Positions 25,991 to 44,244 of a stretch of DNA of 64,000 nt are shown here, piece after piece (within the stretch, counting starts at the first letter, position 1; every line of letters begins with the position of its first letter). This DNA comes from Termitidicoccus mucosus. Lineage in GTDB: Bacteria; Verrucomicrobiota; Verrucomicrobiia; Opitutales; Opitutaceae. Where the stretch lies: contig NZ_CP109796.1 in the NCBI RefSeq assembly GCF_038725785.1, positions 3,472,001 through 3,536,000 of the forward strand, written 5' to 3'. The notes beneath the pieces were generated by a model. The model ran no database searches, was not told the DNA's origin, and saw only the letters and a program-made list of their open reading frames with translations. The position numbers and the translations under genes are program-made.

Positions 25991-26028
25991 AAGATCGGGA
26001 ACGGAGCAATTTGTAATACTGCCTGGGG

Positions 26029-29164: not shown

Positions 29165-29193
29165 TTCCACATCATTCAAAGCAAGGAACCCTA

Positions 29194-29595
29194 TTACTCC
29201 TCCGCCTTCACGGGGCCGATGTTGGTTATCGCATTGTCCTTGTCGAAAAGCTTCAGCCAATACCAATACTGTTTGCCCGTGTCAGAAATTGTGTCCACAT
29301 AGGCTATATCGCCGCGACGGCAGACTTTCACCCTTTTGCGATTTTTGACATCCGGTTTATCGTTGCGGATGATCTCGACACGGCGCCAGTTCCCTTCGGG
29401 AAGCGTCCATGTGAGCGTGACCTTGTCCCCTTTGCGCCCAGCTTTGAGGCTGCCGTTTGTTTGGGCGGCTGCGGCGGCTTCCGGCTGCTTTGGTTCCGAT
29501 TGTTTTTCCGAAGCAGCCCAAACGGTGCTTGATAAAACGATGGAGGCAATGCTACCGAAGACGAAGAGCCATTTTATGATATTATTCATGATCAT
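29194..29595 (-). CDS. Small exported protein with one fibronectin-III-like domain (YWYWLK family)
   Basis: 133 residues, signal peptide MIMNNIIKWLFVFGSIASIV then LSSTVWA. After an Ala/Gln-rich linker, one beta-sandwich-like domain runs KVTLTWTLPEGNWRRVEIIR to YVDTISDTGKQYWYWLKLFD and ends NIGPVKAEE. The same domain occurs twice in the lipoprotein at 32908-33621, which has SYWYWLKVTPPEGGAKTLGP and DYWYWIEALLHEG. These form a small local family I do not recognise by name; fibronectin type III is the nearest fold by strand pattern (W, Y-W-Y-W-hydrophobic). Role in surface binding is only a guess. Confidence 0.65.
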   Translation of the reverse strand: MIMNNIIKWLFVFGSIASIVLSSTVWAASEKQSEPKQPEAAAAAQTNGSLKAGRKGDKVTLTWTLPEGNWRRVEIIRNDKPDVKNRKRVKVCRRGDIAYVDTISDTGKQYWYWLKLFDKDNAITNIGPVKAEE

Positions 29596-29696
29596 GTGTT
29601 ATGTATATTTGGATTTTTGGTTGTGCGGTGGGTTTTGAGAATCACCATGCGGTGTTTTCAAAATTGTTTTCAGGCCCCATGGTGCGCGCAGAGTCA

Positions 29697-30995
29697 TCAG
29701 CTTCCCTCGGGTTTGATTAAGTCGCGCGCGGGCGGGCTTGGCGGTATCGCAAAGGCCGAGGGGGCGTCGGGCTGTCCAGGGTTGAACTTGCCGACGTCGG
29801 GCGCGAGGCGCGGAGCCAGTTCGGGAACGACGGCGCGGATCTCCTCGACAATGCAGCGGGCAAGCTCGTAGGCGCCGTAGTTGCTGAAATGCGAATTATC
29901 AGCGATTGGCTTGGGCTGGTTTGGGTAGGTGTTTGCGGGGACGTGCACGAAGGCGGCCTTGGATTTTTCCTGGCCGAGCGCGACAAACAGGCGCCCGCTG
30001 GCTGCATGCAGGTCGATGAAGGGAATTTTTTTCTCCTCCGCGACCTTGCGCACGGCAGCAGGATAATCGCCAAGCGTGTCTACGAGCGAACCGTCTTTCG
30101 CGAAGCGGCGGCGATACATGGGGGAAATCAGCACGGGTTTTCCTTGTTTTTCGGCGATAGCGTCAACGTATTGGCGGAGATTCCCGGCGTAGGTGGTGAA
30201 GGCACCGCCACCCTTTTCCTTCATGTCGTTATGACCAAATTGTATGAACACATAATCGCCCGGCTTGATTGTGCTGAGGATTTTATCGAGACGGTTTTGC
30301 CGACGGAAGGAGCTGAGCGTGAGGCCGGACTGGGCGTAGTTAGCGACAACCGTGCCCGGTGCGAAAAAGCGCGGGAGCATCTGGCCCCATGATGTCCAAG
30401 GCTCCCTCGGGCCGTCGGTCACGGTGGAATCGCCCGCGAGGAATACGGTCAGCGCGGAGTCGTTGCGTCTGATTTCCAAGCCAGCGACGGATGGATGTGG
30501 TCCGTTGAATTCGAGCGTGAGCCTGCCATCCCAATTCGCGGAGTCGGCTTCGCCCGGTTTCAGGGAAACGTTTTTGAACGTGCCTGCGATGGGCGGCGTG
30601 TGGACATTGACCGTGAAGGTTCGCGCGATGAAAGCGCCCTTGGCGGTTTTTACGGATTCGAGCATCAGTCGGCGATTCTCGGCCTTGATGGTGGTGTCGG
30701 ATGCGGCGGACGGGTCGCCGAGATGGACGGTGACGTCGTAGTTACCCTCGGGCAGGTCTACCGCAAAGAAAAACGGTTTGTCGCTTGTGAGCGCGCCGGT
30801 TTTGAACGCGGCGTTGCCGTTTGCAGGCACGTCGCGAAGACCGTCGGCACTGACAAAGCCATGGCCGCGTTCTTGCGTGTAGGCGGCGCCGATGCCGGGG
30901 CCGAAATCGAAGCGCTCCGGCACGGAGCCGGCGGCGCAAACCGTGGTGGCAAAAACGGACGCAAATACAAGGGGAACGCAATGTTGTTTGTGCAT
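29697..30995 (-). CDS. Secreted rhamnogalacturonan acetylesterase (CE12-like SGNH hydrolase) with N-terminal binding domain
   Basis: 432 residues, start ATG at 30993-30995 followed by a signal peptide (HCVPLVFASVFATTVCAAGS). Residues about 25-180 form a malectin-like or CBM domain (RFDFGPGIGAAYTQERGHGF). The catalytic SGNH domain carries LTVFLAGDSTVTDG (GDS serine), NYAQSGLTLSSFRRQ, DYVFIQFGHNDMKEKG (GxND) and DNSHFSNYGAYELARCI (D-x-x-H). These are the four blocks of CE12/YesT-type rhamnogalacturonan acetylesterases. It removes acetyl from galacturonate in rhamnogalacturonan-I so that PL11 can cut. Context supports the assignment. Confidence 0.9.
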   Translation of the reverse strand: MHKQHCVPLVFASVFATTVCAAGSVPERFDFGPGIGAAYTQERGHGFVSADGLRDVPANGNAAFKTGALTSDKPFFFAVDLPEGNYDVTVHLGDPSAASDTTIKAENRRLMLESVKTAKGAFIARTFTVNVHTPPIAGTFKNVSLKPGEADSANWDGRLTLEFNGPHPSVAGLEIRRNDSALTVFLAGDSTVTDGPREPWTSWGQMLPRFFAPGTVVANYAQSGLTLSSFRRQNRLDKILSTIKPGDYVFIQFGHNDMKEKGGGAFTTYAGNLRQYVDAIAEKQGKPVLISPMYRRRFAKDGSLVDTLGDYPAAVRKVAEEKKIPFIDLHAASGRLFVALGQEKSKAAFVHVPANTYPNQPKPIADNSHFSNYGAYELARCIVEEIRAVVPELAPRLAPDVGKFNPGQPDAPSAFAIPPSPPARDLIKPEGS

Positions 30996-31075
30996 GATGT
31001 TAAAAACGAGTGTTAAGGTGCAAAGGCCAACCACTGGGGGCGCGCGGTGTCGCGAGTCTCCACGTTCGCATGGGT

Positions 31076-32866
31076 TCAGGCATCGACGGCAGGGCCGGCA
31101 TCCAGTTTGGATGCCTCGGCAATGGTTTTGTTTTTCGGATAGCGTTTCGCGGCTTCACGCAGGAAGGCGGCGAGACCGGCGTCCGGGGCGACGGAGCTAT
31201 GGGTGACCACCTCGGCTAGCGTGGTGCAAAGGTCCTCGGTGGTCAGGCCGCCGGCGAGCGCGCCGCTCAATACGGAGATCAACTCAGAGGTTTCCTCCGC
31301 GCCGAGTTTCGCGCCGGGCAGCTTGATGGCGAGCGTGTCCTTGAGCCGGATGCGGGCGGCGGTGATGTAGGCGCGGGGCGGTGGCTTGGGCAGGGCCAGC
31401 AGCGGTTGGATGAGCTTGCGGGCGCGGGACTCGGAGCCGGATTGTTGCTCGAGCATGGCGAGTATGGCGAGCATGGCGGGATCGCGCTCGCCGCGCCAGT
31501 AGGCGACGCGCAGCTCGTTGAGGGCCTTCGCGAGGGCACCCTGCGCAATATGCACCTCGGCCTTGATGCGGGCGACCTCCGCCTGCGTGGCTTCGCGGTA
31601 AACCGGCGGGGGCATCGGCGGGATGTCGCCCTTTATATCCATGCTTTTATAGAAGGCAAAATCGCGCGAATAGACAGCGAGGTTTGTTTCCATGCGGCTT
31701 ATGCCGGAGTTGAACAGGCCGGAGCCGAAGGTTTCATTGAACAACGCCTCGGTCGGCGGCTCGCCGCGCTCGAGCCTGTCCACAAATTTCATGAAGCGTG
31801 GAGCGAATTTCCCCTTTTCGGCGTAGAGGCCGTAGTGGACAAAGACGGAGGCGAGCCGCGACTCTTCGGTGGTAAAGCTGTCGCCGTCCTTTTTTTGAAA
31901 AATATCGGAGAGATTAGGCATATGGCGTCCGGTGAATTTATCGCGCACAAGGGCGAATTGGATGTGGGTTTGCGAAACCTGCGTGCTGCCGAGGAGGCTG
32001 CCGAGACCGCGGGCAAACCAAGGCGGCGGTTTTTGCGCGAGCGAGTTGAGCGCGAACATGCTCAACTCGTAGCTCAAGGTCGCGGCGAGGCGCTCCTCGC
32101 TGGGGCGCTCCGCGCCCGCCGCCGGGTCGCCGGCGCGGATGAGCGCAGTGAGCGGGCCTCCATTTGCCACCAGTTTCACAAAACCTTCCGCGAGCGGTTT
32201 TGTCTCGTATTCCTCCGAGGCTTGGCGCTCTTCGGTTCTGCGCGCGTTCTCGCCCGGCGGCACGGGGGGGGCCAAGCCGGTCTCCTCGCCGGGTTCCGGG
32301 ACCGCGCCGAGGCCGTATTCGGCCGCAAACGCCCGGGAAGCGTCGGCGGCCACGATGAAGCCGCTGGCCTCCACGCCGGTGGCGTCGGCTCCGTCCGCTA
32401 GGGGCAATGCGGTGTCCGGCACGATGGGGTCGCCCTCCCAGGCCCCGCTCAATTGCAACACCGGACCCGGCAGCGACAGGAACTGCTGGTTGATGTCAAC
32501 GACGACATACACGGGTGACTTCGGCAGGGCCTGCGTGAGCATCGGCCAGATATAGGTGGCGGCGAACTGGCGCAACTGCAATTCCTCGACGAGCACCCTG
32601 GTCTGGCTGGCGTTGAGGTTGGAGAGCATTTCATAGCCGGGCGCGACGATGCTGCGCTTGCCGCGCAGCAGCTCCAGCGCGGGCACCTTTACATAGTGCC
32701 ATTGCTCGGGGGGCGGCAGGATGCGGCTGTCGCGCACCACATACGGCTCCATTTCGACGAGGGGGCCGGAGGTTTCCGCTTTTTTTGCGGATGGTTTTTC
32801 CTGTCCGGACGCGCTCCCCAAAAACAAGGTAGCGCACAGCAGGCAAAACAGAATGTTTTTCATCAT
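31076..32866 (-). CDS. Secreted protein resembling a catalytically dead DUF1570/gluzincin with helical repeats
   Basis: 596 residues, signal peptide MMKNILFCLLCATLFLGSAS. The early stretch VEMEPYVVRDSRILPPPEQW is a lead seen in verrucomicrobial exported proteins. In the middle, LAATLSYELSMFALNSLAQK then PPPWFARGLGSLLGST corresponds to a gluzincin region where HExxH and PPWFxEGLA would be expected; the histidines are missing (SYELS), so protease action is unlikely. The last 200 residues resemble tetratricopeptide-like helices (IAQGALAKALNELRVAYWRG). Function unknown; it follows CE12 and may help surface assembly or be a substrate-binding remnant. Confidence 0.65.
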   Translation of the reverse strand: MMKNILFCLLCATLFLGSASGQEKPSAKKAETSGPLVEMEPYVVRDSRILPPPEQWHYVKVPALELLRGKRSIVAPGYEMLSNLNASQTRVLVEELQLRQFAATYIWPMLTQALPKSPVYVVVDINQQFLSLPGPVLQLSGAWEGDPIVPDTALPLADGADATGVEASGFIVAADASRAFAAEYGLGAVPEPGEETGLAPPVPPGENARRTEERQASEEYETKPLAEGFVKLVANGGPLTALIRAGDPAAGAERPSEERLAATLSYELSMFALNSLAQKPPPWFARGLGSLLGSTQVSQTHIQFALVRDKFTGRHMPNLSDIFQKKDGDSFTTEESRLASVFVHYGLYAEKGKFAPRFMKFVDRLERGEPPTEALFNETFGSGLFNSGISRMETNLAVYSRDFAFYKSMDIKGDIPPMPPPVYREATQAEVARIKAEVHIAQGALAKALNELRVAYWRGERDPAMLAILAMLEQQSGSESRARKLIQPLLALPKPPPRAYITAARIRLKDTLAIKLPGAKLGAEETSELISVLSGALAGGLTTEDLCTTLAEVVTHSSVAPDAGLAAFLREAAKRYPKNKTIAEASKLDAGPAVDA

Positions 32867-32907: not shown

Positions 32908-33621
32908 TCATTCCATGGTTTTTGAACTGCCTTTGGGGGCAAATTCGGCCTTAACCGGGCCTTGCACAACAAACGTCCCCTCATGCAGCAATGCCTCAAT
33001 CCAATACCAATAATCCGCCTCGGGGTCGGGCAATTCATCAATCCTGCTGCTGCTCCATTCCAAGGTCGTAAGGATTTCTTGTCGGTTGTTCTTGGGATTA
33101 GTGGATCTTATAATCCTTATGTGTCGATACTTTATATTGGGAAAACTCCACGCTATGGTGGCGGTAGCGTTGTCACGACGGACCTGCCACGGATATTTGT
33201 CTGAAATCCTTGAATAACTGCCAATTTTCCGATCATCGGCCCCAACCCTCACCGGCCCCAAGGTTTTCGCTCCTCCTTCCGGTGGCGTGACTTTGAGCCA
33301 ATACCAATAGGAGCTGGTATCGGGCAGAGTGTCTTCATACCGTCTTGTTTCGGGCTTCAGGAGCGCCGATCGATGCCTATTCCTTGGCCTGCCCGTGGTA
33401 TTCCTGAGAACTTCAATGGATTTGCATGCCGAAAAATCATGGAACCATTCCAAGCTGACGAGATGGCCGTTTCTGGTTGCTGAAAAGACGGCGGCGGGAG
33501 CCACGCCATCCTCATATATGATGTCGGGCACAACGGCTTTCTGTTGCGCTTCCTTTGAGCAAGACGCCCCAAGAAGCATGCAAAACAACCCGACGAGATG
33601 GATGCTGATTTTGATTTTCAT
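32908..33621 (-). CDS. Lipoprotein with two fibronectin-III-like (YWYW) domains
   Basis: 237 residues. Starting at the ATG at 33619-33621, the sequence MKIKISIHLVGLFCMLLGAS is a lipoprotein signal ending with a cysteine in LLGAS-C (lipobox). Domain 1 covers VFSATRNGHLVSLEWFHDFS to YWYWLKVTPPEGG and domain 2 covers TATIAWSFPNIKYRHIRIIR to YWYWIEALLHEG, both closing GP-V/VKAEF. It is a paralogue of the single-domain protein at 29194. It is likely anchored in a membrane by lipid; the partner or ligand is unknown. It marks the left edge of the lower-GC gene set 32.9-41.5 kb. Confidence 0.65.
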   Translation of the reverse strand: MKIKISIHLVGLFCMLLGASCSKEAQQKAVVPDIIYEDGVAPAAVFSATRNGHLVSLEWFHDFSACKSIEVLRNTTGRPRNRHRSALLKPETRRYEDTLPDTSSYWYWLKVTPPEGGAKTLGPVRVGADDRKIGSYSRISDKYPWQVRRDNATATIAWSFPNIKYRHIRIIRSTNPKNNRQEILTTLEWSSSRIDELPDPEADYWYWIEALLHEGTFVVQGPVKAEFAPKGSSKTME

Positions 33622-33663
33622 ATGGGCATGGATTGTTGAAAATATAATAGGGAGAACACGCAT

Positions 33664-36132
33664 TCAGTCATTCTCCCCGGAGACGGGCATCCCCAGTTTT
33701 CCAATGATTCCGCGCTTCAAGCGATCCCCTTCCATTTCAATGACACCGCAATCAAACCAAGCCCTGCATGGGTTGATATTTGTCGCGAATATCAAATTCC
33801 GCAAATCCCCGGCACCGACCAGCAAGATATGATTTTCCCGATTTGAGGGGTTCCGGCATATTGCCATGAACGCGGATTCGCCGGAGAAGGGACGCCCGCT
33901 TATTGCCAATTCGCCATTCCCCACTTTCACGGGCAGCCCCAACTCCAGTTTTTTCCAAACGCTGTTGCTTTCGGGATTCCCAACCAGAATCAATGATTTG
34001 GTTTTCAAGTCATCTTTCGTAACGTCCCTGTCTTTTTTTACAATAAAATCAGCGCCGTAAAACTGCCGGTTATACATCCCCGACAACAAGCGCATGGCCG
34101 CGCGGATGTGGAATGCGCCCCCCGGACCGGACGAAGCCCCCTCGACGACAATAAACGGGCGGGAAAATATCTCCGATATTGGACCGGCATAGCCGGATTC
34201 GTCGAGGCCATTGGCCGGGGCGCTGTCATGCCCGTCATTTTTGCAATGGGCCAGCCATCCAAAAATCATATCCCAAAGCTCCACACCGGTTGGACGCCTG
34301 CCCAGCAAATGCTTGATATCGTTCCGTAGAGGCAACGCTGCTTGCAAGAACTCTTCGGACAGCTTCATTTCCCCGTGGCCTTCCGTCCTTGAGCCATCGT
34401 TAAGAACAAATATATTAATCCCCGGATTATTAGCAACCCTCCCGGAAGGATTGATTGCCTCAAGCCACTCATCCAACGACCCCGGCGAATCTTTCTCGAT
34501 TGATGCTTTTCCGTCGAAAATCGCCCGATCATAAACGATGGCTGCAAAGCGTTTGGGATATTTCATAACCAGTCGCCCGGCGTAAAAGCCACCGCTGCAA
34601 ATCCCATAGAGACTTATCCTTGAGGCATCAATATTGTAATCTTTCTCAACGGCCCTTAACGCCTCCCCGGCATGAACGGATTCATACGACCAGCCCTCGG
34701 GGGCGTTTCTGTATCCAGGCCATAGAATTCCAACCCCGTGCTTCTCGGCGAACCTGCAAATTTGAACGGCATTGCGGTGCGACGCCATGAAGGGGCTCTC
34801 AATAAACGGCCTGCCCCTTGCGGATATGGCCGTCGGCATGATGAGCATCAGGGGAATGCCCCGGGCGCGCGTGTAATTTGACGGAATGTATAGTCGGTAG
34901 AATTGCCGGGAGCGGTCAATTTCAGAGGTAAATCCACGAATGTGCAATCCTGGGGTGTCCCTGGCATAATCTCCGGTGTTTCTTTCCCTCAGTTTCATCA
35001 ACTCTGACAGGCTTCCGAGCGTGTAAACAACCTTTTCCTGCCACGCACGGTTGTTTGCATCGTAATTTGATTTGTCCAAAAGAATCTTCCCTCGTATGAT
35101 CTGTGCCTCAATGTTGAGTTGAGCGCCATCGTCCCATGAGAACTTTGCGAGCGCGTTTTTCATATCCTCGAACACTCTCCGGGGGGAGCCCACCAAGAAA
35201 TACTCATAAGCCTCGTCCTTGTTCGATTTGTAGGAAATTTTATAGAATCCCTCGCCCAGATAATCCAGGCCATTTCGCAAGACACTGCCGCTTCTGAGGC
35301 TTTCTTTTTTCAGCACTATTTGGCCGGTCGCCATGTCATGAACTTCCACAGAGACGGCCAATCTGCCCAACAAATCATCCCATTTGAGCGTCGGAACCTC
35401 GCGATCGCTCGCCTTGGCATATATTTGTTTGTTTAAAAAGCCCCCCGTCGTATTCCACGCGGCTTGAAAATCCTTGGATTGATCCAGCGCCATCAACATC
35501 CGGAGCCTCGGAGGACCGGCTGGAGAGACGATTTTGATAAAACACATGTTCTCTCCCTCCTCCAGCGGAACGGGAATCAAGGAATTGATTCCAAGCTCCA
35601 CATTTTCCGTCGGCACCAGTTCCTTCACCAGCTTGGAATTGACATACACAGCAAGCCTATTGTCCGTGTCCACTTCGAGAATCGCAGTTTGACGCTGTGG
35701 CGAAATCGCACGGAATGCCATGGCCGACACCTGGCTGTCTTTCCATGATATTTTATTAAAATAAGCGTCCTCGGCGTCCAAACTCAACAATGCTGGCAAT
35801 GCCCCGTTTATTCCTGCCTCGCGGGCGGTCAATTTCAATCGCGCGCTGTCCCGCTCATAATTCAACCGGACAGTATCTTTCCATGAATTTCGACCATTCG
35901 CCTTAAAATCCGTGTCCCAAGAACCCAAAAAATTATACTTGGATATTTCGCATGCCCCCTTGCCAAGATCCATACTGACAATCTCCGTCTTTTCAAACCA
36001 CCGGGTCATCTCCCGGCCATCCCCGGCGTCCAGCGTGCTTATGCCAAAAATAACGAGGCAAATGTTTGCGGCAAGAATGCGCCCCGTTTTTGACACAAGA
36101 GGATTGAAGGAGTGTGTGATTTTCCAAGACAT
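33664..36132 (-). CDS. Large exported alpha/beta hydrolase (esterase-like) of uncertain substrate
   Basis: 822 residues with a signal peptide or anchor (GRILAANICLVIFGISTLDA). The first half is beta-rich with a PA14/galactose-binding flavour (FLGSWDTDFKANGRNSWKDT). Residues about 420-640 form an alpha/beta hydrolase: RLYIPSNYTRARGIPLMLIM, FAEKHGVGILWPGYRN, ISLYGICSGGFYAGRLVM with the nucleophile elbow G-I-C-S-G-G, and VYDRAIFDG. The rest is a beta domain (KSLILVGNPESNSVWKKLEL). This arrangement is found in predicted esterases of polysaccharide loci, for example PHB-depolymerase-like hydrolases. Acetyl or feruloyl ester removal is plausible but unproven. It lies 31 bases after the exported unknown at 36152 in transcription order. 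Confidence 0.65.
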   Translation of the reverse strand: MSWKITHSFNPLVSKTGRILAANICLVIFGISTLDAGDGREMTRWFEKTEIVSMDLGKGACEISKYNFLGSWDTDFKANGRNSWKDTVRLNYERDSARLKLTAREAGINGALPALLSLDAEDAYFNKISWKDSQVSAMAFRAISPQRQTAILEVDTDNRLAVYVNSKLVKELVPTENVELGINSLIPVPLEEGENMCFIKIVSPAGPPRLRMLMALDQSKDFQAAWNTTGGFLNKQIYAKASDREVPTLKWDDLLGRLAVSVEVHDMATGQIVLKKESLRSGSVLRNGLDYLGEGFYKISYKSNKDEAYEYFLVGSPRRVFEDMKNALAKFSWDDGAQLNIEAQIIRGKILLDKSNYDANNRAWQEKVVYTLGSLSELMKLRERNTGDYARDTPGLHIRGFTSEIDRSRQFYRLYIPSNYTRARGIPLMLIMPTAISARGRPFIESPFMASHRNAVQICRFAEKHGVGILWPGYRNAPEGWSYESVHAGEALRAVEKDYNIDASRISLYGICSGGFYAGRLVMKYPKRFAAIVYDRAIFDGKASIEKDSPGSLDEWLEAINPSGRVANNPGINIFVLNDGSRTEGHGEMKLSEEFLQAALPLRNDIKHLLGRRPTGVELWDMIFGWLAHCKNDGHDSAPANGLDESGYAGPISEIFSRPFIVVEGASSGPGGAFHIRAAMRLLSGMYNRQFYGADFIVKKDRDVTKDDLKTKSLILVGNPESNSVWKKLELGLPVKVGNGELAISGRPFSGESAFMAICRNPSNRENHILLVGAGDLRNLIFATNINPCRAWFDCGVIEMEGDRLKRGIIGKLGMPVSGEND

Positions 36133-36151
36133 TGTTAATTCAAATAGGTTT

Positions 36152-37201
36152 TCAGTCTGACGCGCCTTGGTGAGACGGTATATTCTCTAAAATTCTGCGC
36201 CCATCCGGCGCACGCTTGTAGCGCGCCCTGATTTCCCGATCCGGGAGGATTTGGACCAAGCCCTTGGCTGTCAGCCTCGTCTCGCTTACAAAGCCCTTTT
36301 TTTTATCCCTGATGACGATATAGTTGATTCCGACTTTTGTTCCATATTCATACGTAAAGTCGTTGTCCTCGCGAAGCGCGACCGGGGGATCGCCGAAACT
36401 GAAAACCTTGGCGGGATGCCTCCGTTCACGCCACGCATACTTGTTGCCATTGCCATTTTCGGTGCTCCAGCTTTTCAATAATAAATTTTCGTATTGCAAT
36501 GAGACGCTGCCGCAATCCCCCCCCTTGATCCTTGTGAGACAACAGTCGTCCGACCAAGACAGGACATTGCGTTTTGTATCCGAAAATTCCATAACTTGGA
36601 CGTATCCAAACTCGCAATATTCGATCTTTAATATTTGCCTGCCATTTCCCGCCGCGTCCAGCCGGGAAGCTTGGAGAATGGATTCCCTGTCGGTTGCAAA
36701 CACAACCAGACCCCAAACGGGGTCGGTGATCCTATCCAGCCATCCATTTTTATAGCACCATTCCTGTCCATTGGCATGGTTCAATCTTGCGCCAATGCCG
36801 TCCGGGGCGGCACGGACGAACCAGCCTGACACAGAATCCTTATAGGCGTTTATTTTATGGAAAGCAATTTTCCGCCCATCCGGTCTTATCCAAGTCATGT
36901 CCCCGCCTTTGTTTTGGTGAAGGCAAGTCCGCAAGCCTGTGATTTGCCATTCCGACTTGGCACCACGTTCGCGGGAAGGCGTCACTTTGTGTATCGCGAC
37001 AAACCTGAAACCGAGCTTGGACAATTCGGGAGTGGAACCCAGATTGAATCTCACACGGGGCAGCCCCCACAAGTCCACATGTCCCAGATTGTGCACAATC
37101 TGCGCGCTTATGGAATCCTCCCCGGCGCTGACACACGGCAAAAGTGTGCAGAAGAGCAACGGAAGCAATGTCAACCAGTAAGGCATGTCAAAACGAAGCA
37201 T
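36152..37201 (-). CDS. Exported protein of unknown function
   Basis: 349 residues from the ATG at 37199-37201, with a signal peptide (FDMPYWLTLLPLLFCTLLPC then VSAGEDS). The mature part is beta-strand-rich and contains repeated aromatic turns (YCEFGYVQVMEFSDTKRNVL, SWSDDCCLTRIKGGD). No catalytic motif or named domain is recognised; RHS/YD-like strands are a distant possibility. Its first 14 bases overlap the end of the O-antigen-ligase-like gene, so the two are probably translated from one message and may act together. Confidence 0.6.
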   Translation of the reverse strand: MLRFDMPYWLTLLPLLFCTLLPCVSAGEDSISAQIVHNLGHVDLWGLPRVRFNLGSTPELSKLGFRFVAIHKVTPSRERGAKSEWQITGLRTCLHQNKGGDMTWIRPDGRKIAFHKINAYKDSVSGWFVRAAPDGIGARLNHANGQEWCYKNGWLDRITDPVWGLVVFATDRESILQASRLDAAGNGRQILKIEYCEFGYVQVMEFSDTKRNVLSWSDDCCLTRIKGGDCGSVSLQYENLLLKSWSTENGNGNKYAWRERRHPAKVFSFGDPPVALREDNDFTYEYGTKVGINYIVIRDKKKGFVSETRLTAKGLVQILPDREIRARYKRAPDGRRILENIPSHQGASD

Positions 37202-38627
37202 TATTTGAGCAGGCAAACAACCGTCTCCAAAAAACAATATTTTCCCGCACGATAATTCGCTGCCCGAGTTGAGGGGAATAAACCGGCTTGATATTCATAG
37301 TGGTGGCCCAACGCCGCCACGGCAGACTGTGTTCCGAGGAATCCTGCTCCGGCAGGCATAGCAACAGCCTCGGGCAATCAATCTTGGCACCGTCGCCGCG
37401 ACGCGGCGGCGCGGTCGGGTGCAGCAAGACAATATTCCCGTCGTCATGAGGGGTGTCAAAAATGCGCGTGGCATGGAATCCCGCATAGATTCGTGGATTC
37501 CCCGAGGGCTTTTCTTCCCGTCCCGTAACATGCCACGGCGGATATATAATCGCACTCCGGACGGAAAACAACGGGGCGGCGGCTCTGATGGCGCGTCCGT
37601 AAAAAGGCCCGAAAACCGCCCCATCCGCCCAGATTTCCACCTGCGCGCGGGGATTGTCCGCGCCTCCCGGGTGCCCGCGTTTGCACAGCGTGACTTTATC
37701 GGTGGCGCTATCCTTGATTACCAACCATTCATAACGCCGAGACGCATGCCGACCTGCGCACCAAAGGGCAGCCGTGGCAGCACAGGAAACCAAAGCGGCC
37801 CGGAACAACGCGCCAAGGACGGCGCGCACCTGCGAACGGGCCGCGCCAACCACGATCAAAAACATCGCGAACAGAGGGAAGATCCATAGCAAGGGCTCCA
37901 TCCACAGGCTGCTCCAGACATTGGCCAATCCCCACGCAACCAGGCAGGCTCCGGCAGCCGCCATTAATAAGGAGTGCTCTCGTGTAACCGACAAAATGAC
38001 AAGAAACGCCAGCAGCAACACGGCAACCGCCAGCAGGTGCAGCCCGTATTCCACGGCGACATCCAGGTAGCTGTTGACAAAGCCGACCGGCCGCTCCGCC
38101 GCATCCAAGGATTGATACCAATTGGCATATGCAAGTCCCCCGTTCCGAAAACCCCAGCCATTAAAGGGCGAGTCGTGGACCATGGCAAGAGCGCCCCGCC
38201 ACATTTCCAAGCGGTTGGAAACGGACTTGTCCGTCGCGAGGTGTCCCGGCGAAAATCTTCCGACGGCCCCCACCAGCACCAGAAGCAGAGCGGCAACCGC
38301 AACGCGCGGCGCAATCGCCTTCAGGCATGCGGAAAGCCGGACCGGCCCGAGCCTGACGACAAAAAAGAACAAGGCCGCTCCGGCGGCGGCCATGAAACCG
38401 CCCCGCGAGCAGGTCTTTGCCAGCAAAAACCAAACCGTCAGCTCAAGCAAAAGCAGAAAAGGATGCGCATACCCAAGCGCACGATGTTCCTTCTTTTTGG
38501 CCGTGACAAAACCGGCAATTACCCAAACCAGAATTAAAACAAACACCAAAAATGCCGCCCATGCATTTGGATTGGGCCAGTAAACGCTCCATCTCAAATT
38601 TCCGTTGTGAAAATATTCGGAGGGCAT
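37188..38627 (-). CDS. O-antigen-ligase-like (Wzy_C) membrane protein with a novel C-terminal domain
   Basis: 479 residues. About eight transmembrane helices are visible: WAAFLVFVLILVWVIAGF, FLLLLELTVWFLLAKTC, MAAAGAALFFFVVRL and others. Between them lies the O-antigen ligase/polymerase loop LEMWRGALAMVHDSPFNGWG, FRNGG and VNSYLDVAVEYG, as in Wzy_C (conserved P-x-x-G-W-G and N-S-Y/H). The usual 150-200 N-terminal residues before WPNPNAWAAFL are absent, so it is short or truncated at the 5' end. The last about 170 residues form a soluble domain (EIWADGAVFGPFYGRAIRAA, RLLLCLPEQDSSEHSLPWRR) that I do not recognise. Known relatives transfer glycans to lipid A or proteins. It overlaps the next gene by 14 bases. 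Confidence 0.65.
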   Translation of the reverse strand: MPSEYFHNGNLRWSVYWPNPNAWAAFLVFVLILVWVIAGFVTAKKKEHRALGYAHPFLLLLELTVWFLLAKTCSRGGFMAAAGAALFFFVVRLGPVRLSACLKAIAPRVAVAALLLVLVGAVGRFSPGHLATDKSVSNRLEMWRGALAMVHDSPFNGWGFRNGGLAYANWYQSLDAAERPVGFVNSYLDVAVEYGLHLLAVAVLLLAFLVILSVTREHSLLMAAAGACLVAWGLANVWSSLWMEPLLWIFPLFAMFLIVVGAARSQVRAVLGALFRAALVSCAATAALWCAGRHASRRYEWLVIKDSATDKVTLCKRGHPGGADNPRAQVEIWADGAVFGPFYGRAIRAAAPLFSVRSAIIYPPWHVTGREEKPSGNPRIYAGFHATRIFDTPHDDGNIVLLHPTAPPRRGDGAKIDCPRLLLCLPEQDSSEHSLPWRRWATTMNIKPVYSPQLGQRIIVRENIVFWRRLFACSNNASF

Positions 38628-38638
38628 ATGCGGAGTTG

Positions 38639-39493
38639 CTATTTTTTATTTGCCACCTGCCTGCCTTCATTGCCGGTCAGTCCGCTCCATATCTGTTTCA
38701 GCACATCCATTTGCCGGGGGCTTAAAAAATCACCCGCCTCTTTTATTATCACTTCTTCTTTTGCGGATAGCATACGCGCTGATGCCTTGGCAATGCCGGG
38801 CGCGCGCGATCTGATATGCTCATTGGCCAGCATGACACCGTTGTCCTTGAAAAGGCGCACCATCTTATCGACATCTTCAGCGTCGAGTTCGCATCCCGAT
38901 TCTTTCATTTGCTCCGAAATGGAACCGGCCAGCTCCCTGCAAGGCTTTGTATCACGATAATAAACCAACGCCTCAAACACCTCGTCGCCAAGCGGCTCTC
39001 TCAGGTCGGATTCAAACTGCCGCCGCCGGGCATCCAGATTAGCCCTTCTGATCGCGGGATCAACATTCCGGTTCATCCCGCCTTGGCGCATCACATTACG
39101 GATTGTTTCCAAATCCCGTGCCAAGGCGGCGCAGATCAAGTTTTTTTTCTCCTCACTCATTGGATATTTTGAGAAAAATGCCCCGTATTCTTTTTCAAAT
39201 TCCGTCAGTCTGTTCGTACCTGTTGCGCCCTGCCTCCGGCTTGCGCCCGGATTTGTCATCCTAACGGCACTCCCATCGGGGTTGCCATATTGCTTGGGGT
39301 TCCGTCCTGACGCGGACCAGCCGTCCGTCCCATCTGGAATTGATCCACCCTTCGGGTGCTGCGGATTTCCGTTCGCGCCTGGAGGCAAAGCCCCGCCCTT
39401 CCCAGACGCGACCGCATGGAATATATTCATGGCAGCGCTGACCGTTAAAAGTGACAGCAGGATTATCACTGCCGGGATATATTTGATTTTCAT
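38639..39493 (-). CDS. Membrane-anchored helical protein, paralogue A
   Basis: 284 residues. An N-terminal anchor or signal (KIKYIPAVIILLSLLTVSAA) is followed by a Gly/Pro/Asn-rich low-complexity stretch (30-95) and then an all-helical domain: LTEFEKEYGAFFSKYPMSEE, KKNLICAALARDLETIRNVM, EPLGDEVFEALVYYRDTKPC, and a C-terminal AKEEVIIKEAGDFLSPRQMD. It aligns along its length with the next gene (39574-40557), sharing F-E-x-x-Y-x-A-F-F, SE-x-x-x-x-LI, E-A-x-V-Y-Y and the end I-x-P-x-Q. No catalytic motif is seen. The family is not recognised; it may be a periplasmic adaptor or inhibitor. Confidence 0.6.
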   Translation of the reverse strand: MKIKYIPAVIILLSLLTVSAAMNIFHAVASGKGGALPPGANGNPQHPKGGSIPDGTDGWSASGRNPKQYGNPDGSAVRMTNPGASRRQGATGTNRLTEFEKEYGAFFSKYPMSEEKKNLICAALARDLETIRNVMRQGGMNRNVDPAIRRANLDARRRQFESDLREPLGDEVFEALVYYRDTKPCRELAGSISEQMKESGCELDAEDVDKMVRLFKDNGVMLANEHIRSRAPGIAKASARMLSAKEEVIIKEAGDFLSPRQMDVLKQIWSGLTGNEGRQVANKK

Positions 39494-39573
39494 GATTAGT
39501 TATTAGTGCGTTGTTTTTCTTTCACCGTGACCGGTATTTTGCGCTGGCGCGCCTTGGGATTTCACAATAGCAT

Positions 39574-40557
39574 TTAGTTTTCCACTGACTCGCTATTTAT
39601 CTTGCTGACAAGGCCGTCCCAGTAGAATCTCATTGCCTCCGCTTGATTTGGATTTATGATCGCGCCAGCTTCCCTCATCACATTGCTCTCTGCGCTTGTG
39701 AGCGAACGTAAAATATTCTTGCTCGCATAAGGTATTCGCAACCTATACCACTCTTCATCGTAACGCACTCCGTTTTTTTTGAGAACATCGACCAGCAAAT
39801 CGACCTGATCAGCGCTTAGTTCCGACCCCGTCACGGCGATTTGTCCGGCGATTTCATTGGCCAGTCTTCGCTGACTCAGTGTTTTTTGATAATACACAAA
39901 CGCCTCGAATGTCTCGTCACCAATCGACCCTCGAAGAGCCTCCGCAAGCAGGCGCGCCCCTTCTTCCACATTCGCCATTCTGACTTCCATGTCCCCCTTT
40001 CCCAGCTCGCCCCGACGCATCAAGCTCAGGGTGAAATCGTTATTTTTATCCAAGGCTATCCGTATCAATTCCTGCTGACCTTCGCTTAGCGAGTGTTTTG
40101 CAAAAAACGCCGCATAGTCCCTTTCGAACCGCTGGATTGTCAGCGGTTTTTCACTTGTTGCGAATGGTTTTCCGCCATGGCCTTGAGATGTTTTTTTGCT
40201 GTTTTTGGCATCCTTGGCCCTGGCAATTGTCTTGGCGACAACATCGCTCCTTTCCTTGGAACCGGCACCAGCAGTCTTTCTCTTTGCGCCGTTATCTTTT
40301 GAGGACTGAAACAAATCTCGTCGTAGAGACAGATTGCCTTGGTTCACGTCCGCAAACCCCTTTGACCCATACCCGGAATTCCTGGCCTTCTCATCATTTT
40401 GCCTCTCGTCGTCCGAAGCACTCCCGGCGTAGCGCCAGCCTCCAAATGCATTCGCGAGCAGGCTGTTCCCAGACTTGACCGCATGGATGTTTACGGCGAC
40501 GCTGGCCGTCAACAGCAAGAGCAGGGTTGCCAAAATAAAAATATATTTAACTTTCAT
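39574..40557 (-). CDS. Membrane-anchored helical protein, paralogue B
   Basis: 327 residues from the ATG at 40555-40557; two earlier in-frame codons give MIIMKVKYIF and are unlikely. The signal/anchor is VKYIFILATLLLLLTASVAV. A charged, low-complexity region (50-150, GSKERSDVVAKTIARAKDAK) precedes the helical domain QRFERDYAAFFAKHSLSEGQ, QELIRIALDKNNDFTLSLMR, GSIGDETFEAFVYYQKTLSQ, ending TSAESNVMREAGAIINPNQA. Paralogous to the gene at 38639; 80 bases separate them. The pair probably arose by tandem duplication and perhaps form a heteromer. Function unknown. Confidence 0.6.
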   Translation of the reverse strand: MKVKYIFILATLLLLLTASVAVNIHAVKSGNSLLANAFGGWRYAGSASDDERQNDEKARNSGYGSKGFADVNQGNLSLRRDLFQSSKDNGAKRKTAGAGSKERSDVVAKTIARAKDAKNSKKTSQGHGGKPFATSEKPLTIQRFERDYAAFFAKHSLSEGQQELIRIALDKNNDFTLSLMRRGELGKGDMEVRMANVEEGARLLAEALRGSIGDETFEAFVYYQKTLSQRRLANEIAGQIAVTGSELSADQVDLLVDVLKKNGVRYDEEWYRLRIPYASKNILRSLTSAESNVMREAGAIINPNQAEAMRFYWDGLVSKINSESVEN

Positions 40558-40593
40558 GATGATCAATTATTGATATTCATAGGCAAGACCTTG

Positions 40594-41508
40594 TTATGCC
40601 ATGGAGGAACCACCTTCCAATTCCGCCAGCCACTCATTTAGAAGTTCGATTTCATCGTGTTTCGCCTCAATATTGAGGTTAAGATTCTGAATTTCTTGCG
40701 CGATTTCACTCAAATCAAACTCGATTGATGAGATATCAGATTGGGCATTCTCAATAATTTCACTCACATCGTCAAGATCCGCCAGCACCGCCTCTAGGGA
40801 ATCAACATATCCGAGCAATTCGGATTCCATCGCGTATATTATCCCGCTGAGATCATCCGCGTCGTTTTGAATATTCGAGATGCCTGTTTCCACCGCCTCC
40901 GCAGCCGACTCAGTTTGCTCGAGTTGCTGCTCATATCCGCCAATCTGGCTCTCAATCTGGCCCATCTCCACATAGATCATTTCCAACTCCACAGCTACAT
41001 ATTCCTCGTCCGACGCGTCGTAATCCCCGTTGTCCATCGCCGCTTCCAATGCATCGGCCTCGCCTTGCAGCTCATTAATTTGATCGTTCAGGATATCAAT
41101 GGTGTCCGTGATGTCTTGGATCTCCTCCAAGTATGCATCCAAAGTTTCGTTGGCGTCGGCTATTTGATCAAAAAGCGAATCATATAGGCTTTGGTAAGCA
41201 TCAATATCAGACTGTATTGTTTCAAGTTGTTGATCCAACCCGCCCTTTTCGGAATCTAGATTGGTCTGTGTGTCAAGCGCGTCATTCAGCAGCGCCTGTG
41301 CCAGAGCCAACTCACCTTCGAGACCGGATTTTTCAACCAAGGCGTCATCATACGCCTGCTGCAACTCAACGAGCTCATCATTGAGCCCGAATATCATCGC
41401 CCGCAACTCGTCCGCGGTCATGGCACCGCAGACCATCCCGAATGACATGCAAAGAAAAAGGCAAAACGTTGCCGACAGTTTTTTGTAAATGTTGATGTTG
41501 GTTTTCAT
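40594..41508 (-). CDS. Acidic exported coiled-coil protein
   Basis: 304 residues, signal peptide KLSATFCLFLCMSFGMVCGA. The mature protein is almost wholly heptad-type helix with many Glu, Asp, Leu, Ile and Gln: LQQAYDDALVEKSGLEGELA, IQDITDTIDILNDQINELQG, AKHDEIELLNEWLAELEGGS. It is strongly acidic with few basic residues. Such proteins form rods or tethers; periplasmic or surface location is expected. No family is recognised. It is the first gene of the lower-GC set transcribed toward the O-antigen-ligase-like gene. Confidence 0.65.
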   Translation of the reverse strand: MKTNINIYKKLSATFCLFLCMSFGMVCGAMTADELRAMIFGLNDELVELQQAYDDALVEKSGLEGELALAQALLNDALDTQTNLDSEKGGLDQQLETIQSDIDAYQSLYDSLFDQIADANETLDAYLEEIQDITDTIDILNDQINELQGEADALEAAMDNGDYDASDEEYVAVELEMIYVEMGQIESQIGGYEQQLEQTESAAEAVETGISNIQNDADDLSGIIYAMESELLGYVDSLEAVLADLDDVSEIIENAQSDISSIEFDLSEIAQEIQNLNLNIEAKHDEIELLNEWLAELEGGSSMA

Positions 41509-41583: not shown

Positions 41584-44160
41584 TCAGAACGCATAGGTAA
41601 CGCCGCCGCGGATGCCGACATTTTCGTTGGCGGCGCCGCGGTATTCGGAATGGTAGCGCAGGTCGATGCGGAGCTTGCGGGTCGCGCTCCAGTCGATGCC
41701 GGCGTCCAATCGCCAGCCGTTGGCGTTGATGCCGGGGGATTCGATGTCGATGCGCCCGCCGAAGAGGTCGGCGCTGAGCACGCGGGTGTCGCTTTCAAAC
41801 TCAGCCAGCCACGCGTAATGGAGAAAGGGGCGCAACATGCCCGCCTTGGTACTGAAGCTGCGCGCGACGCGGACACCCAACTTGCCTTGGAGGGAAGTCT
41901 CCTTTTGTTCGTAAACAGACAGGCTGGCTTCGCCGGCGTTGCGTTCCTGAAAGGCGTCGGCTTTCCAATCCAGCCATTGCGCGCCGACGATGGGGGTGAC
42001 TTCAAACCAAGGAAGATTGAGCGTGAAGGCGAGCGAGGCGGCGGCACCGAGGCGGGTGCCGCCGGTGTCGGCGTCGGCCCAGGTGGCGAGCCGGGTGAGC
42101 GCCACGGAGCGGGAGGATTTATAATCGTCGGCGCCGTAGAAGCCGGCCAAGTTGAACTGGAAGCGGCCCTTGTTATAGCGCGCATTGAGTCCGAAGGTGT
42201 AACTGTCCACGTCGCAGGAGCCGCCGGCGGTGTCGAGATCGAACTCGGTTTGCTCGTAAGCGGCAAAGGCGCCGAGGATGGCGTTTTCGCCGAACGCATA
42301 ATCGACACCCGCGACCGAGGCAATGACGCCGTAGTTGGAATAGGCGGCAAGGGCATCGCGGGCATGCGACGCCTCCTGCCGGTAACCTTCGAGGAAGGTT
42401 TGCCACGAGCGTTTTTTGCGCTTGAAGGCGGCGTCCTGATACATCCTGTCCTCCATGCTCTGCACCATCGAGTTGGCGCGGACGACGGCAGAGGGGAACC
42501 ACGACTGGTAGTTGCTGGGGGTGAGCTGGTCGAGAACGTCGCGGTAGAGCATGATGGAGGGCTGGCGGTTGAGGGCGTCGAAGAGTGGCTCGAAGGTTTG
42601 GTAAACATCCCCATTATTGGCCGCCAAGGCGTAAACCTCGTCGACTTTTTCAGCCGCCGCCAAGTATTTGCCGGCGAGTTGGGGCGAACTGGCGAAGGGA
42701 AGTTGTTCGAAGGAGACGAGGAGAGTGCGTTTTTCGTGGAGGACGCCGCCAATGGTTTCGTTTTGAACATCCCAAGCCCAGGAGTAGCGGATGGAGGTGC
42801 TGGAGGGGAAGGAGACGTGGGTGTCGGCGAAGTTGCCGTCGAGGGCGCCGGCGGTGCCGGTAATGACGCCGTCGGTCACGGTCTCGGTGACGGGGGCGGT
42901 GACGGTCATGAGAGCGTAGGTGCCGGTGACGAGGGGAAAGGTGTCGGCGAGGCCGACGACGAGGTTGGCATCGCCGGGGGCGGTGGGATGCGCGGGGCTG
43001 TGGACGGTGAGGGTGCCGGAGATGGCGAGGCGGTCATATACGGTGGGAGTGACGAGGTCGAAGCTGAGGTTGCCGTAGAGATTGACATTGCCGTTGATGG
43101 TGAGAGGGGCGTCGGCGGCGGTGTTGCGGCGACCGGGCGTAAGCTGGCCGCCTCCTTCGACGGTGACGTTGCCGTTGATAATGCCACTGCCGCCGAGGGT
43201 GGACGCCGACCATATGTCGATGTTGCCGTTGTGGACGCCGTCCACAATGTATTGGGCTCGGCTGCCGCGGAGGCGGAAGGCTGCGCGGCCATCGCCGGTG
43301 AAGTTGACGATGCCGGTCATATGAGTGATGTCGCCATAGACGTCGCAGGTGGCGTTGCCGGTGTTGTCACCGTAGAAGAGGCCGGACATTTCGCTGGTCT
43401 GGCCGGTGCCGAGGCTGGCGTTGATGCTCACGTTCCGCGCGCCGACGTAGATCACAGTGCCCGGGTCGGTGCGGAGGAGAGCACCGATTTCGACGGTTGC
43501 GGTGCGGCTGGCATTGGTGGTGGTGACGCTGCCGGATTGCATCCAGACGAAGGGGACGTTGCCGGACTGGGAGACGTCCATCTCGGCATTGCCGAGGAGG
43601 GTGAAGACGCCGAGTCCGAGGCCGCTGGCGGCGAGGCGCACACCAGCGGAGGAGTTGGCGAGAGTGAGGCGAGTGTAGGGGTGGAGGATGACATTCGTGG
43701 CGAGCCGGGTGGTGGCGTTGCCGGTGGTGTCGGGCCGTGTGATGCGGTAGGAGGAGCCCATTTCGGCACCGATGACACCGTTGAAAACGAAACCGCGTCC
43801 AACGGGGTTGATTTCGAGCCAGCCGTTTTCGTTGCCCGCGAACTCAAGGGTGTAGGCCTTGCTGGCACCGGTCTGGATGCTATAGAGGGTGAGGCGTTTG
43901 TCGCCGGCATCGGTGTGGTTATAGGTGATGCGCTTGTTGGGGATGGCGGGGTCGCCGGGCAGGCGGATGGCGATGTCGGGGCCTTCGAGGACGACGGGGG
44001 AGCCGTTGTCGGTGCGCCAGTTGGCGGGGTTAAGGAAGTTGTTGTCCACCGCGCCGGTCCAGTCGGTGAAGTGGTCCGGGATGGGCGTGAGCTGGGCGCG
44101 GAGGGCCGCTGCCGACAAAAGGGCGAGGGCGAGAGGGAGGGATTTGGCGAGGAATTTCAT
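41584..44160 (-). CDS. Autotransporter (type Va) outer-membrane protein
   Basis: 858 residues. Signal peptide LAKSLPLALALLSAAALRAQ, then a beta-helical passenger rich in N/G/T (IRLPGDPAIPNKRITYNHTD; NGNVTVEGGGQLTPGRRNTA) typical of autotransporter strand repeats. The last about 280 residues form the translocating barrel: SHARDALAAYSNYGVIASVA, EQTEFDLDTAGGSCDVDSYT, ending ENVGIRGGVTYAF with the terminal phenylalanine needed for BAM insertion. It is expected on the cell surface; the passenger has no visible enzymatic motif, suggesting adhesion. It precedes (in transcription follows) the giant TonB receptor gene by 84 bases. Confidence 0.85.
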   Translation of the reverse strand: MKFLAKSLPLALALLSAAALRAQLTPIPDHFTDWTGAVDNNFLNPANWRTDNGSPVVLEGPDIAIRLPGDPAIPNKRITYNHTDAGDKRLTLYSIQTGASKAYTLEFAGNENGWLEINPVGRGFVFNGVIGAEMGSSYRITRPDTTGNATTRLATNVILHPYTRLTLANSSAGVRLAASGLGLGVFTLLGNAEMDVSQSGNVPFVWMQSGSVTTTNASRTATVEIGALLRTDPGTVIYVGARNVSINASLGTGQTSEMSGLFYGDNTGNATCDVYGDITHMTGIVNFTGDGRAAFRLRGSRAQYIVDGVHNGNIDIWSASTLGGSGIINGNVTVEGGGQLTPGRRNTAADAPLTINGNVNLYGNLSFDLVTPTVYDRLAISGTLTVHSPAHPTAPGDANLVVGLADTFPLVTGTYALMTVTAPVTETVTDGVITGTAGALDGNFADTHVSFPSSTSIRYSWAWDVQNETIGGVLHEKRTLLVSFEQLPFASSPQLAGKYLAAAEKVDEVYALAANNGDVYQTFEPLFDALNRQPSIMLYRDVLDQLTPSNYQSWFPSAVVRANSMVQSMEDRMYQDAAFKRKKRSWQTFLEGYRQEASHARDALAAYSNYGVIASVAGVDYAFGENAILGAFAAYEQTEFDLDTAGGSCDVDSYTFGLNARYNKGRFQFNLAGFYGADDYKSSRSVALTRLATWADADTGGTRLGAAASLAFTLNLPWFEVTPIVGAQWLDWKADAFQERNAGEASLSVYEQKETSLQGKLGVRVARSFSTKAGMLRPFLHYAWLAEFESDTRVLSADLFGGRIDIESPGINANGWRLDAGIDWSATRKLRIDLRYHSEYRGAANENVGIRGGVTYAF

Positions 44161-44244
44161 GTTATGGAAAGGAGGATTGAAATGCGGAATGCCGGACTCC
44201 GGCAGGGATTGCGTGCTTGTGGTTTGTCAGTTCCGCATTTTCGT

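What the first reader, a model, noticed from the sequence alone, without database searches (positions are those of the whole stretch)
32908..41508. Possible undescribed exported gene set around an O-antigen-ligase-like protein
Eight genes in one direction, all exported or membrane-bound, with visibly lower GC than both flanks: two-domain lipoprotein, alpha/beta hydrolase, exported unknown overlapping an O-antigen-ligase-like protein, two tandem helical paralogues and an acidic coiled-coil protein. The ligase next to giant surface proteins with shared membrane tails raises the idea of a surface-glycan or protein-anchoring pathway.
Basis: inference. Interest (0 to 1): 0.65.

Follow-up and report, generated by a model that had tools for sequence, protein, structure and literature searches.

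The report
Mobile Rhs-linked half-ligase gene set
A low-GC block of seven exported-protein genes in a gut-type Verrucomicrobiota bacterium holds a shortened sugar-ligase-like membrane protein that lacks the usual catalytic histidine, a small Rhs-toxin-like shell protein and a cysteine hydrolase; the core is repeated about ten times in this genome and recurs elsewhere in the phylum, and its function has not been tested.

Summary
The observation mostly holds: seven (not eight) minus-strand genes at 32908-41508, each with an N-terminal hydrophobic segment, 51.7% GC against 59.9% and 64.6% in the flanks. The core is not unique: ligase, hydrolase and exported protein recur together at ten places in this genome, and the pairing recurs elsewhere in Verrucomicrobiota.

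The 'ligase' is a half-size WaaL-like protein. It keeps the two arginines that bind undecaprenyl-PP in WaaL but not the acceptor-activating histidine (V/L/I/A in 50 of 50 copies read; 19 of 20 long ligases keep His). The 'exported unknown' is a mini Rhs/YD shell, fused to the ligase in three loci. The hydrolase has Cys where Ser is usual (14 of 15). Twenty long-ligase control loci show neither partner.

The giant surface proteins next door belong to another cassette, which occurs without the block at four other places, so that link looks like insertion. The helical paralogues are not conserved partners.

Best reading: a cargo-type envelope module in which a probably non-ligating membrane platform binds lipid-linked glycan and docks an exported hydrolase and an Rhs-type shell. 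The anatomy is well supported; the mechanism is inference (about 0.4). No activity was tested.

The parts
32908..33663 (-). two-domain exported lipoprotein-like protein, 251 aa (domains probably fibronectin-III-like; that label is recalled)
   Evidence: NCBIfam match to part of PelI, 38.6 bits, far under its cut-off, two stretches; 8 of 8 two-domain copies in this genome lie in ligase/hydrolase islands
33664..36132 (-). exported alpha/beta hydrolase, 822 aa, Cys512 at the nucleophile place (GICSG), His586
   Evidence: Pfam S9 below cut-off; AF2 model and fold match to S9/esterases Z about 20; Cys in 14 of 15 relatives, His in 15 of 15
36152..37237 (-). exported mini Rhs/YD shell protein, up to 361 aa (start perhaps at 37186 or 37201)
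   Evidence: profile A4 finds RhsA and other Rhs chains, best E 3.2e-15; fold of the homologous domain in a fusion matches Rhs cores, Z 17.7
37188..38627 (-). half-size WaaL-like membrane protein with a degenerate alpha/beta-hydrolase-like C-terminal domain, 479 aa
   Evidence: Wzy_C 49.6 bits; homologue model matches WaaL 7tpg residues 136-407, Z 12.4, and alpha/beta hydrolases over its C-terminal domain; R75 and R139 align with R191 and R265, V184 with H313
38639..39493 (-). exported helical paralogue 1, 284 aa (cargo, not a conserved partner)
   Evidence: 36-37% identical to paralogue 2; relatives not found near half-ligases elsewhere
39574..40566 (-). exported helical paralogue 2, 330 aa (cargo)
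40594..41508 (-). exported acidic coiled-coil protein, 304 aa, net charge -65 by residue count
   Evidence: only generic coiled-coil matches; charge
31076..32866 (-). flank: gene C15 of the autotransporter cassette, elsewhere next to the autotransporter
   Evidence: pair without the block in L038, L180, L181, L183
41584..44160 (-). flank: autotransporter of the same cassette
   Evidence: Pfam Autotransporter 147.7 bits
13714..15003 (+). tyrosine-recombinase-like gene shared with other islands (motif by eye; relation to this block unproven)
   Evidence: 88.8% DNA identity over 2.1 kb with island E (L032), 74-82% with L035, L036, L026; no Pfam match; motif read, recalled pattern

Best explanation
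The block is one of ten copies, in this Opitutaceae-type genome, of a cargo module whose core is: (i) a half-size WaaL-like inner-membrane protein; (ii) an exported alpha/beta hydrolase; (iii) an Rhs/YD-type shell domain, separate or fused to (i); and often (iv) a two-domain lipoprotein. Shown: domain make-up, fold matches of homologues, conserved arginines, missing histidine, Cys at the nucleophile place, co-occurrence, and absence of the block from sister cassettes. Inferred: the half-ligase binds undecaprenyl-PP-linked glycan through the two conserved arginines but does not ligate by the WaaL mechanism; its degenerate hydrolase-like domain docks the live hydrolase, which cuts or transfers an acyl/ester-type group on the bound or nearby envelope substrate; the Rhs shell encloses or presents a partner chain on the periplasmic side. 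Elsewhere such modules sit beside Rhs-repeat giants and conjugation genes, which suggests spread as cargo of mobilisable elements and a role in surface modification or contact competition. In this window the module was probably inserted between two genes of an autotransporter cassette.
For: Ten ligase loci and ten matching hydrolase loci in the own genome, pairs about 1-17 kb apart; a YD-type ORF within 0.9 kb of, or fused to, the ligase in 10 of 10 own islands. Ligase-YD fusion of 775-787 aa in three loci (and L028, L030). Arginine equivalents of WaaL R191/R265: 25 of 25 in A3, 24 and 25 of 25 further copies (the one loss is the split frame L078). Place of H313: V17 L5 I2 A1 in A3 and only V, I or L in 25 further copies; 19 of 20 long-ligase controls have His there and one Glu, some read from an HN motif where the added alignment slipped. 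Roles of those residues from passages of PMC10920833. Fold: WaaL part, hydrolase part, Rhs part; profile to WaaL E 1.2e-5. Controls: Rhs/YD ORF within 10 kb in 28 of 50 half-ligase loci (11 of the 33 not used to train the YD profile) against 0 of 20 long-ligase loci; hydrolase-like ORF within 3 kb in 26 of 50 (17 of 36 untrained) against 0 of 20. Relaxase-like gene in 7 of 10 own islands (Pfam/NCBIfam for two of them). Sister cassettes without the block: 4. Own islands interleave with Ereboglobus-genus copies in the tree.
Against: 22 of 50 half-ligase loci showed no Rhs/YD ORF and 24 of 50 no hydrolase-like ORF by these tests, so neither partner is universal. By the repeat criterion an Rhs giant was near only 6 of 50; the window island has none. 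No relaxase was found in the window. No direct repeats at the block ends were found. Another catalytic residue is possible: W170 and Q172 are invariant in A3. Z 12.4 to WaaL alone would be weak for a helical protein by the tool's own note; FtsW follows at Z 10. The model was of a homologue, not of the window pair; the hydrolase model is middling (pLDDT 77). Some untrained positives are near relatives of trained ones (L035 and L036 of L026). Complex formation was not tested.
Confidence: 0.4

Rival explanations
1. The half-ligase is an active transferase with a non-canonical base (for example in the W-Y/F-Q motif), and the set decorates surface lipids or proteins with glycans; the hydrolase trims or de-acylates the product.
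For: Phosphate-binding arginines kept; W170 and Q172 invariant in 25 of 25; related polymerase families use Asp/Glu at the His place, and one family probably a residue elsewhere (passages of PMC10920833).
Against: No His, Asp or Glu at the place in 50 of 50 copies read; the N-terminal half of WaaL is missing. I noticed no glycan-synthesis genes among the neighbours, but most neighbours were seen only as ORF starts and were not annotated, so this is weak.
Confidence: 0.25
2. The set is an accessory kit for Rhs/Tc-type polymorphic toxins carried on mobilisable islands: it helps their export, surface fixing, processing or immunity. The window copy is one that lost its toxin gene or carries other exported proteins instead.
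For: Rhs-repeat giants in islands B, C, D and E of the own genome and near half-ligases in the Ereboglobus genus (L071), TAV5 (L081), L079, L133 and L138; fused Rhs-type shell; relaxase/coupling genes nearby.
Against: Six of ten own islands show no Rhs giant in the stretches read; at least five Rhs loci of the own genome (2161736, 5523653, 5730135, 6976293, 7183794) lie about 40 kb or more from any half-ligase; most distant half-ligase loci lack one.
Confidence: 0.25
3. Decaying or selfish cargo: a formerly useful set kept only by transfer, with the window copy drifting.
For: Islands H and I are broken (stops or split frames); low GC; near-identical duplicates C/D (98% in the fusion protein).
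Against: The window frames are open and full length; arginine and active-site places are conserved across distant copies.
Confidence: 0.1

Closest known systems
O-antigen ligase WaaL (Pfam PF04932 Wzy_C; CAZy GT121)
   Same: Wzy_C match, membrane fold over WaaL residues 136-407, both phosphate-binding arginines
   Different: Lacks the first about 135 residues and the acceptor-activating His; extra degenerate hydrolase-like domain; other neighbours
PglS/PglL-type O-linking oligosaccharyltransferases
   Same: Same superfamily, with arginines and an active-site His aligned with WaaL (passages of PMC12800693)
   Different: PglS with H324 changed served there as the inactive control; the half-ligase has no His at that place
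Rhs/YD-repeat shells (RhsA, RhsP, Tse15, teneurins)
   Same: Sequence profile and fold
   Different: About 300 aa instead of a whole cocoon; no Rhs core match, no Pfam RHS_repeat match in the window protein and one under the cut-off in the fusion
S9/esterase alpha/beta hydrolases (LC-Est1, prolyl tripeptidyl peptidase)
   Same: Fold Z about 20; profile E 7.8e-17 to LC-Est1C
   Different: Cys at the nucleophile place; extra N- and C-terminal domains
Long O-antigen ligases of the same phylum (20 control loci, 583-796 aa)
   Same: Wzy_C region; R265 equivalent in 20 of 20, R191 equivalent in 17 of 20
   Different: His at the acceptor place in 19 of 20, Glu in one; 222-360 residues before the first arginine; none of these partners (0 of 20)

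Membership tests
O-antigen ligase WaaL (GT121) | Wzy_C domain | tested here: met
   49.6 bits, cut-off 31.7
O-antigen ligase WaaL (GT121) | two Und-PP phosphate-binding Arg (R191, R265) | tested here: met
   aligned with R75 and R139; 25 of 25, 24 and 25 of 25 further copies
O-antigen ligase WaaL (GT121) | acceptor-activating His313 | tested here: not met
   V184 in the window; V/L/I/A in 50 of 50 copies read
O-antigen ligase WaaL (GT121) | full 12-helix fold with N-terminal half | tested here: not met
   the A3 rows begin near the same point before the Wzy_C helices, the starts of L026, L037, L073 and L076 having been set by me; homologue model aligned from WaaL residue 136; the upstream gene ends 11 bp before the start
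O-antigen ligase WaaL (GT121) | ligase activity | not testable with these tools
   needs an assay
Rhs/YD-repeat proteins | YD beta-shell fold | tested here: met
   homologous domain Z 17.7, 272 residues aligned, rmsd 3.8; profile E 3.2e-15
Rhs/YD-repeat proteins | RHS_repeat above the curated cut-off | tested here: not met
   no match in the window protein; 17.3 bits against 22 in the fusion
Rhs polymorphic toxins | Rhs core followed by a C-terminal toxin domain | tested here: not met
   window YD protein: no NCBIfam match; an Rhs core is found in the giant of L032
S9/esterase alpha/beta hydrolases | alpha/beta hydrolase fold | tested here: met
S9/esterase alpha/beta hydrolases | Ser in GxSxG | tested here: not met
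   Cys512 in the window; Cys in 14 of 15, Ser in L039 only
Relaxase-bearing mobilisable element | relaxase with the cargo | tested here: inconclusive
   7 of 10 own islands, not the window's
Anti-phage defence system | PADLOC match | tested here: not met
   7 proteins scanned; only the coiled-coil protein gave matches, of the generic coiled-coil kind

The most novel reading that the evidence does not exclude
A Verrucomicrobiota envelope machine built on a 'pseudo-ligase': a WaaL-derived membrane platform that still grips undecaprenyl-PP glycans but cannot activate the acceptor, and hands its substrate to a separate exported hydrolase that in one lineage changed from Ser to Cys (as some transferring enzymes have it, by recall), under an Rhs-type shell, giving a new way to attach or remodel surface glycans or Rhs proteins, spread between genera as mobile cargo.
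Probability: 0.25. Interest if true: 0.8.

Novelty: new variant of a known kind. Interest (0 to 1): 0.55.

Why it matters
Proteins of this shape may be taken for O-antigen ligases on the strength of the Wzy_C match alone, although the catalytic His is absent in all 50 copies read. If the reading is right, half-ligases form a separate family with their own partners, and the fusion with an Rhs shell ties lipid-linked glycan handling to Rhs biology. The family offers a clear test: two arginines kept, the base lost.

Tried and rejected
Anchoring of the giant surface proteins by the ligase: rejected because their cassette lacks the block at four other places. Helical paralogues as partners: rejected. 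Missing N-terminal half encoded just upstream: rejected, the upstream gene ends 11 bp before the start and is exported, helical and not ligase-like. Defence system: PADLOC gave only coiled-coil matches. Plasmid records: no match to the window ligase by tblastn; records near the window's genome may be left out there. Boundary repeats: nothing convincing among 12 direct-repeat families. tRNA insertion site: no tRNA in the window. The low-GC 360-aa frame between the same two cassette genes in L038 gave no significant match to the block's profiles. The VIA-align list for the fusion barely tests parts outside 175-268, 298-465 and 479-775 (its own note).

Papers: 'Verrucomicrobia', 'Rhs', 'O-antigen ligase' together gave 0 papers; 'Verrucomicrobia' with 'O-antigen ligase' gave 1, not on this subject by title and abstract start; 'Rhs', 'YD repeat', 'Verrucomicrobia' gave 2, an Akkermansia outer-membrane proteome and a teneurin review, not opened. 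This covers only the held open-licence library. Seen as listings with abstract starts only: and so PMC4358385. Passages only: PMC12800693 and PMC10920833.

Limits of the counts. The YD and hydrolase profiles were trained on part of the same loci, hence the split given; the Rhs-repeat profile was seeded from L032 and recruited from L029, L079 and L081. The 50 half-ligase loci are not random: 10 own islands, 2, 18 and 20 picked by hand from the higher-scoring matches; contig ends cut many flanks. The 20 control loci were picked by long open frame (11, 9). A3 has 25 rows; left out were L030, L035, L036, L078, L081 and L120-L139, which read one by one against A3. In one search the added alignment slipped in 6 of 20 controls at the His place; there I used the HN motif. 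An earlier look at 12 weaker matches (L059-L070) had shown HN in 10; L065 and L067 did not show it at that place. In one search a parsing fault scored perfect matches as 0; one search repeated those 40 jobs. The hhalign cut-off of 70 was chosen after a first look; at 80 the count is 22 of 50 and at 50 it is 28 of 50, controls 0 of 20 each time. My Rhs criterion missed giants that Pfam sees in L027, L071 and L079. Phylum scans scored at most 4 (ligase) and 2 (hydrolase) candidates a genome, so their counts are lower bounds. Of the C15 matches I fetched five places and had L038: four of these six stretches show the autotransporter too; L182 (contig end) and L184 do not.

Full report
Observation. 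The stretch 32908-41508 holds seven minus-strand ORFs of 251, 822, 361, 479, 284, 330 and 304 aa, not eight. Gaps are 0-80 bp, with one overlap that depends on a TTG start. GC is 0.517 against 0.599 and 0.646 in the 10 kb on either side, and this is the lowest 8.6-kb stretch of the window (profile). All have an N-terminal hydrophobic segment. Pfam names the ligase-like protein above its cut-off (Wzy_C, 49.6 bits); the hydrolase stays below the S9 cut-off, and the coiled-coil protein gives generic matches.

It is one of ten. The ligase-like protein has 13 matches at ten places in the same 7.9-Mb genome, window included. The hydrolase has matches at the same ten places plus one weak extra, and an ORF of the exported-protein family lies within 0.9 kb of the ligase, or is fused to it, in ten of ten. 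All eight two-domain lipoprotein copies lie in these islands, in five of the ten; three single-domain matches lie elsewhere, one of them at window 29194-29595. The helical paralogues were found only in the window. Islands H and I are broken. Seven of the ten have a relaxase-like gene in the stretch read (named by Pfam or NCBIfam for L032 and L026), and L028 also a coupling protein and a TraL-like gene. The window shows no relaxase; a tyrosine-recombinase-like gene about 18 kb from the block is shared with other islands (motif by eye).

Context. G007 of the same family has the contig lengths of Opitutaceae strain TAV5 (abstract start of PMC4358385), and the two named hits are one Ereboglobus MAG, whose contig positions agree with G080, so genus g3 is Ereboglobus. 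In a tree of 32 half-ligases the own islands interleave with this genus: island E with one copy, islands C and D with two others, which fits transfer or old duplication.

The half-ligase. In an alignment of 25 relatives the rows begin near the same point, just before the Wzy_C helices (four starts were set by me). The profile aligns with WaaL (PDB 7tpg) residues 147-381, E 1.2e-5, and the AF2 model of a homologous fusion (L028, 775 aa, mean pLDDT 89) matches WaaL 136-407, Z 12.4, 234 aligned, rmsd 4.1; for a helical protein that Z alone would be weak, so the sequence match matters. [quoted passage not shown] In A3 the arginines are kept in 25 of 25 and the His place is V17, L5, I2, A1. In the 25 other half-ligases of the survey the His place is V, I or L, the first arginine is kept in 24 and the second in 25. 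Of 20 long-ligase controls 19 have His there and one Glu, and they carry 222-360 residues before the first arginine, against 43-150 of open frame in 24 of the 25 further half-ligases; the exception, L081 (TAV5), has a frame of unclear start. The C-terminal domain matches alpha/beta hydrolases (Z about 10), and I see no Ser or Cys at its elbow as far as the alignment allows (by eye), so it is probably not catalytic.

The mini Rhs shell. The homologous part of the fusion (469-775) matches Rhs cores best (RhsA 7q97, Z 17.7, 272 aligned, rmsd 3.8), and the family profile finds RhsA at E 3.2e-15 and other Rhs chains. The fusion occurs in L028, L030 and L071.

The hydrolase. The AF2 model (mean pLDDT 77) matches S9 peptidases and esterases over the catalytic domain, Z about 20. 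The nucleophile place is Cys in 14 of 15 aligned relatives and Ser in one, L039; His586 is kept in 15 of 15. Of 18 ORFs next to distant half-ligases that I looked at, 17 show a Ser motif of the GxSxG kind and none a GxCxG one; not all of these are proven hydrolases.

Co-occurrence and control. In 50 half-ligase loci, 28 have a YD- or Rhs-type ORF within 10 kb; 17 of these helped train the YD profile, so 11 of the 33 others is the fairer figure; 0 of 20 long-ligase loci have one. A hydrolase-like ORF lies within 3 kb in 26 of 50 (17 of the 36 untrained) against 0 of 20. An Rhs giant by my repeat criterion was near 6 of 50; Pfam sees three more, in L027, L071 and L079. At least five Rhs loci of the own genome lie about 40 kb or more from any half-ligase. 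So the hydrolase and the shell are the commonest company, and Rhs giants are recurrent but not general. Phylum scans found matches of the half-ligase profile in 128 of 387 genomes, which includes long ligases, and of the hydrolase profile in 45 of 387, most of them partial; both are lower bounds.

Insertion. The cassette C15 - autotransporter - giant protein shows its first two genes 7 bp to 1.6 kb apart in L038, L180 and L181 of the own genome and in L183 of G004; in the window 8.7 kb with the seven genes lie between. Two further stretches with C15, L182 and L184, show no autotransporter. In L038 an unrelated low-GC frame sits at the same junction, so this may be a place that takes up cargo. 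No flanking repeats were found. The idea that the ligase serves the giant proteins is therefore not supported.

Helical paralogues. Relatives occur in 48 of 141 genomes, own included; outside the own genome they are weak (best E 1.7e-11) and mostly cover the C-terminal part. In the five other genomes where I found both a helical relative and a short half-ligase (G012, G034, G036, G052, G080) the places are on other contigs or hundreds of kilobases or more apart; draft contigs leave a little room for doubt.

Reading. The anatomy is firm; the work of the module is not known. I favour a substrate-binding membrane platform with a docked live hydrolase and an Rhs shell (0.4), over a transferase with another base (0.25), a kit for Rhs toxins (0.25) and decaying cargo (0.1). 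The kit and platform readings overlap. It fails WaaL membership on two defining features (His, N-terminal half) but may still handle the same lipid-linked substrate. Novelty: a new variant of a known superfamily, with a set of partners that I did not find in print in the listings.

Noticed in passing
own genome 319001-348000 (L030/L031) and 7546001-7576000 (L028/L029): Two nearly identical islands (ligase-YD fusions 98% identical) with relaxase-like gene, coupling protein, TraL-like gene and SpvB/TcdB-mid/RHS giants: probably a recent duplication of a whole element.
   Followed up: partly
window 31076-32866, 41584-61132; L038, L180, L181, L183: A repeated cassette of a 600-aa gene, an autotransporter and giant proteins, at least four times in this genome and once seen in G004.
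   Followed up: partly
L038:2660-3739: Exported-looking protein with CxxCxGxG repeats (DnaJ-like, by eye) at the same junction where the window carries the block.
   Followed up: no
L087, L088, L124: Distant half-ligases with DUF1573-like genes (L087, L124), YD-like ORFs and, in L087, MauE: a possible second conserved cluster.
   Followed up: partly
L082:9103-10560 (second contig of G007, 99,831 bp, the TAV5 plasmid): A half-ligase on a plasmid.
   Followed up: no
window 19712-31034: Polysaccharide-use cluster: family 11 rhamnogalacturonan lyase, LacI-type regulator, deacetylase, GH2, GDSL lipase.
   Followed up: no
L079, L083, L084: Half-ligases whose C-terminal domain still shows an alpha/beta-hydrolase elbow-like motif without Ser or Cys at the nucleophile place (by eye).
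   Followed up: partly
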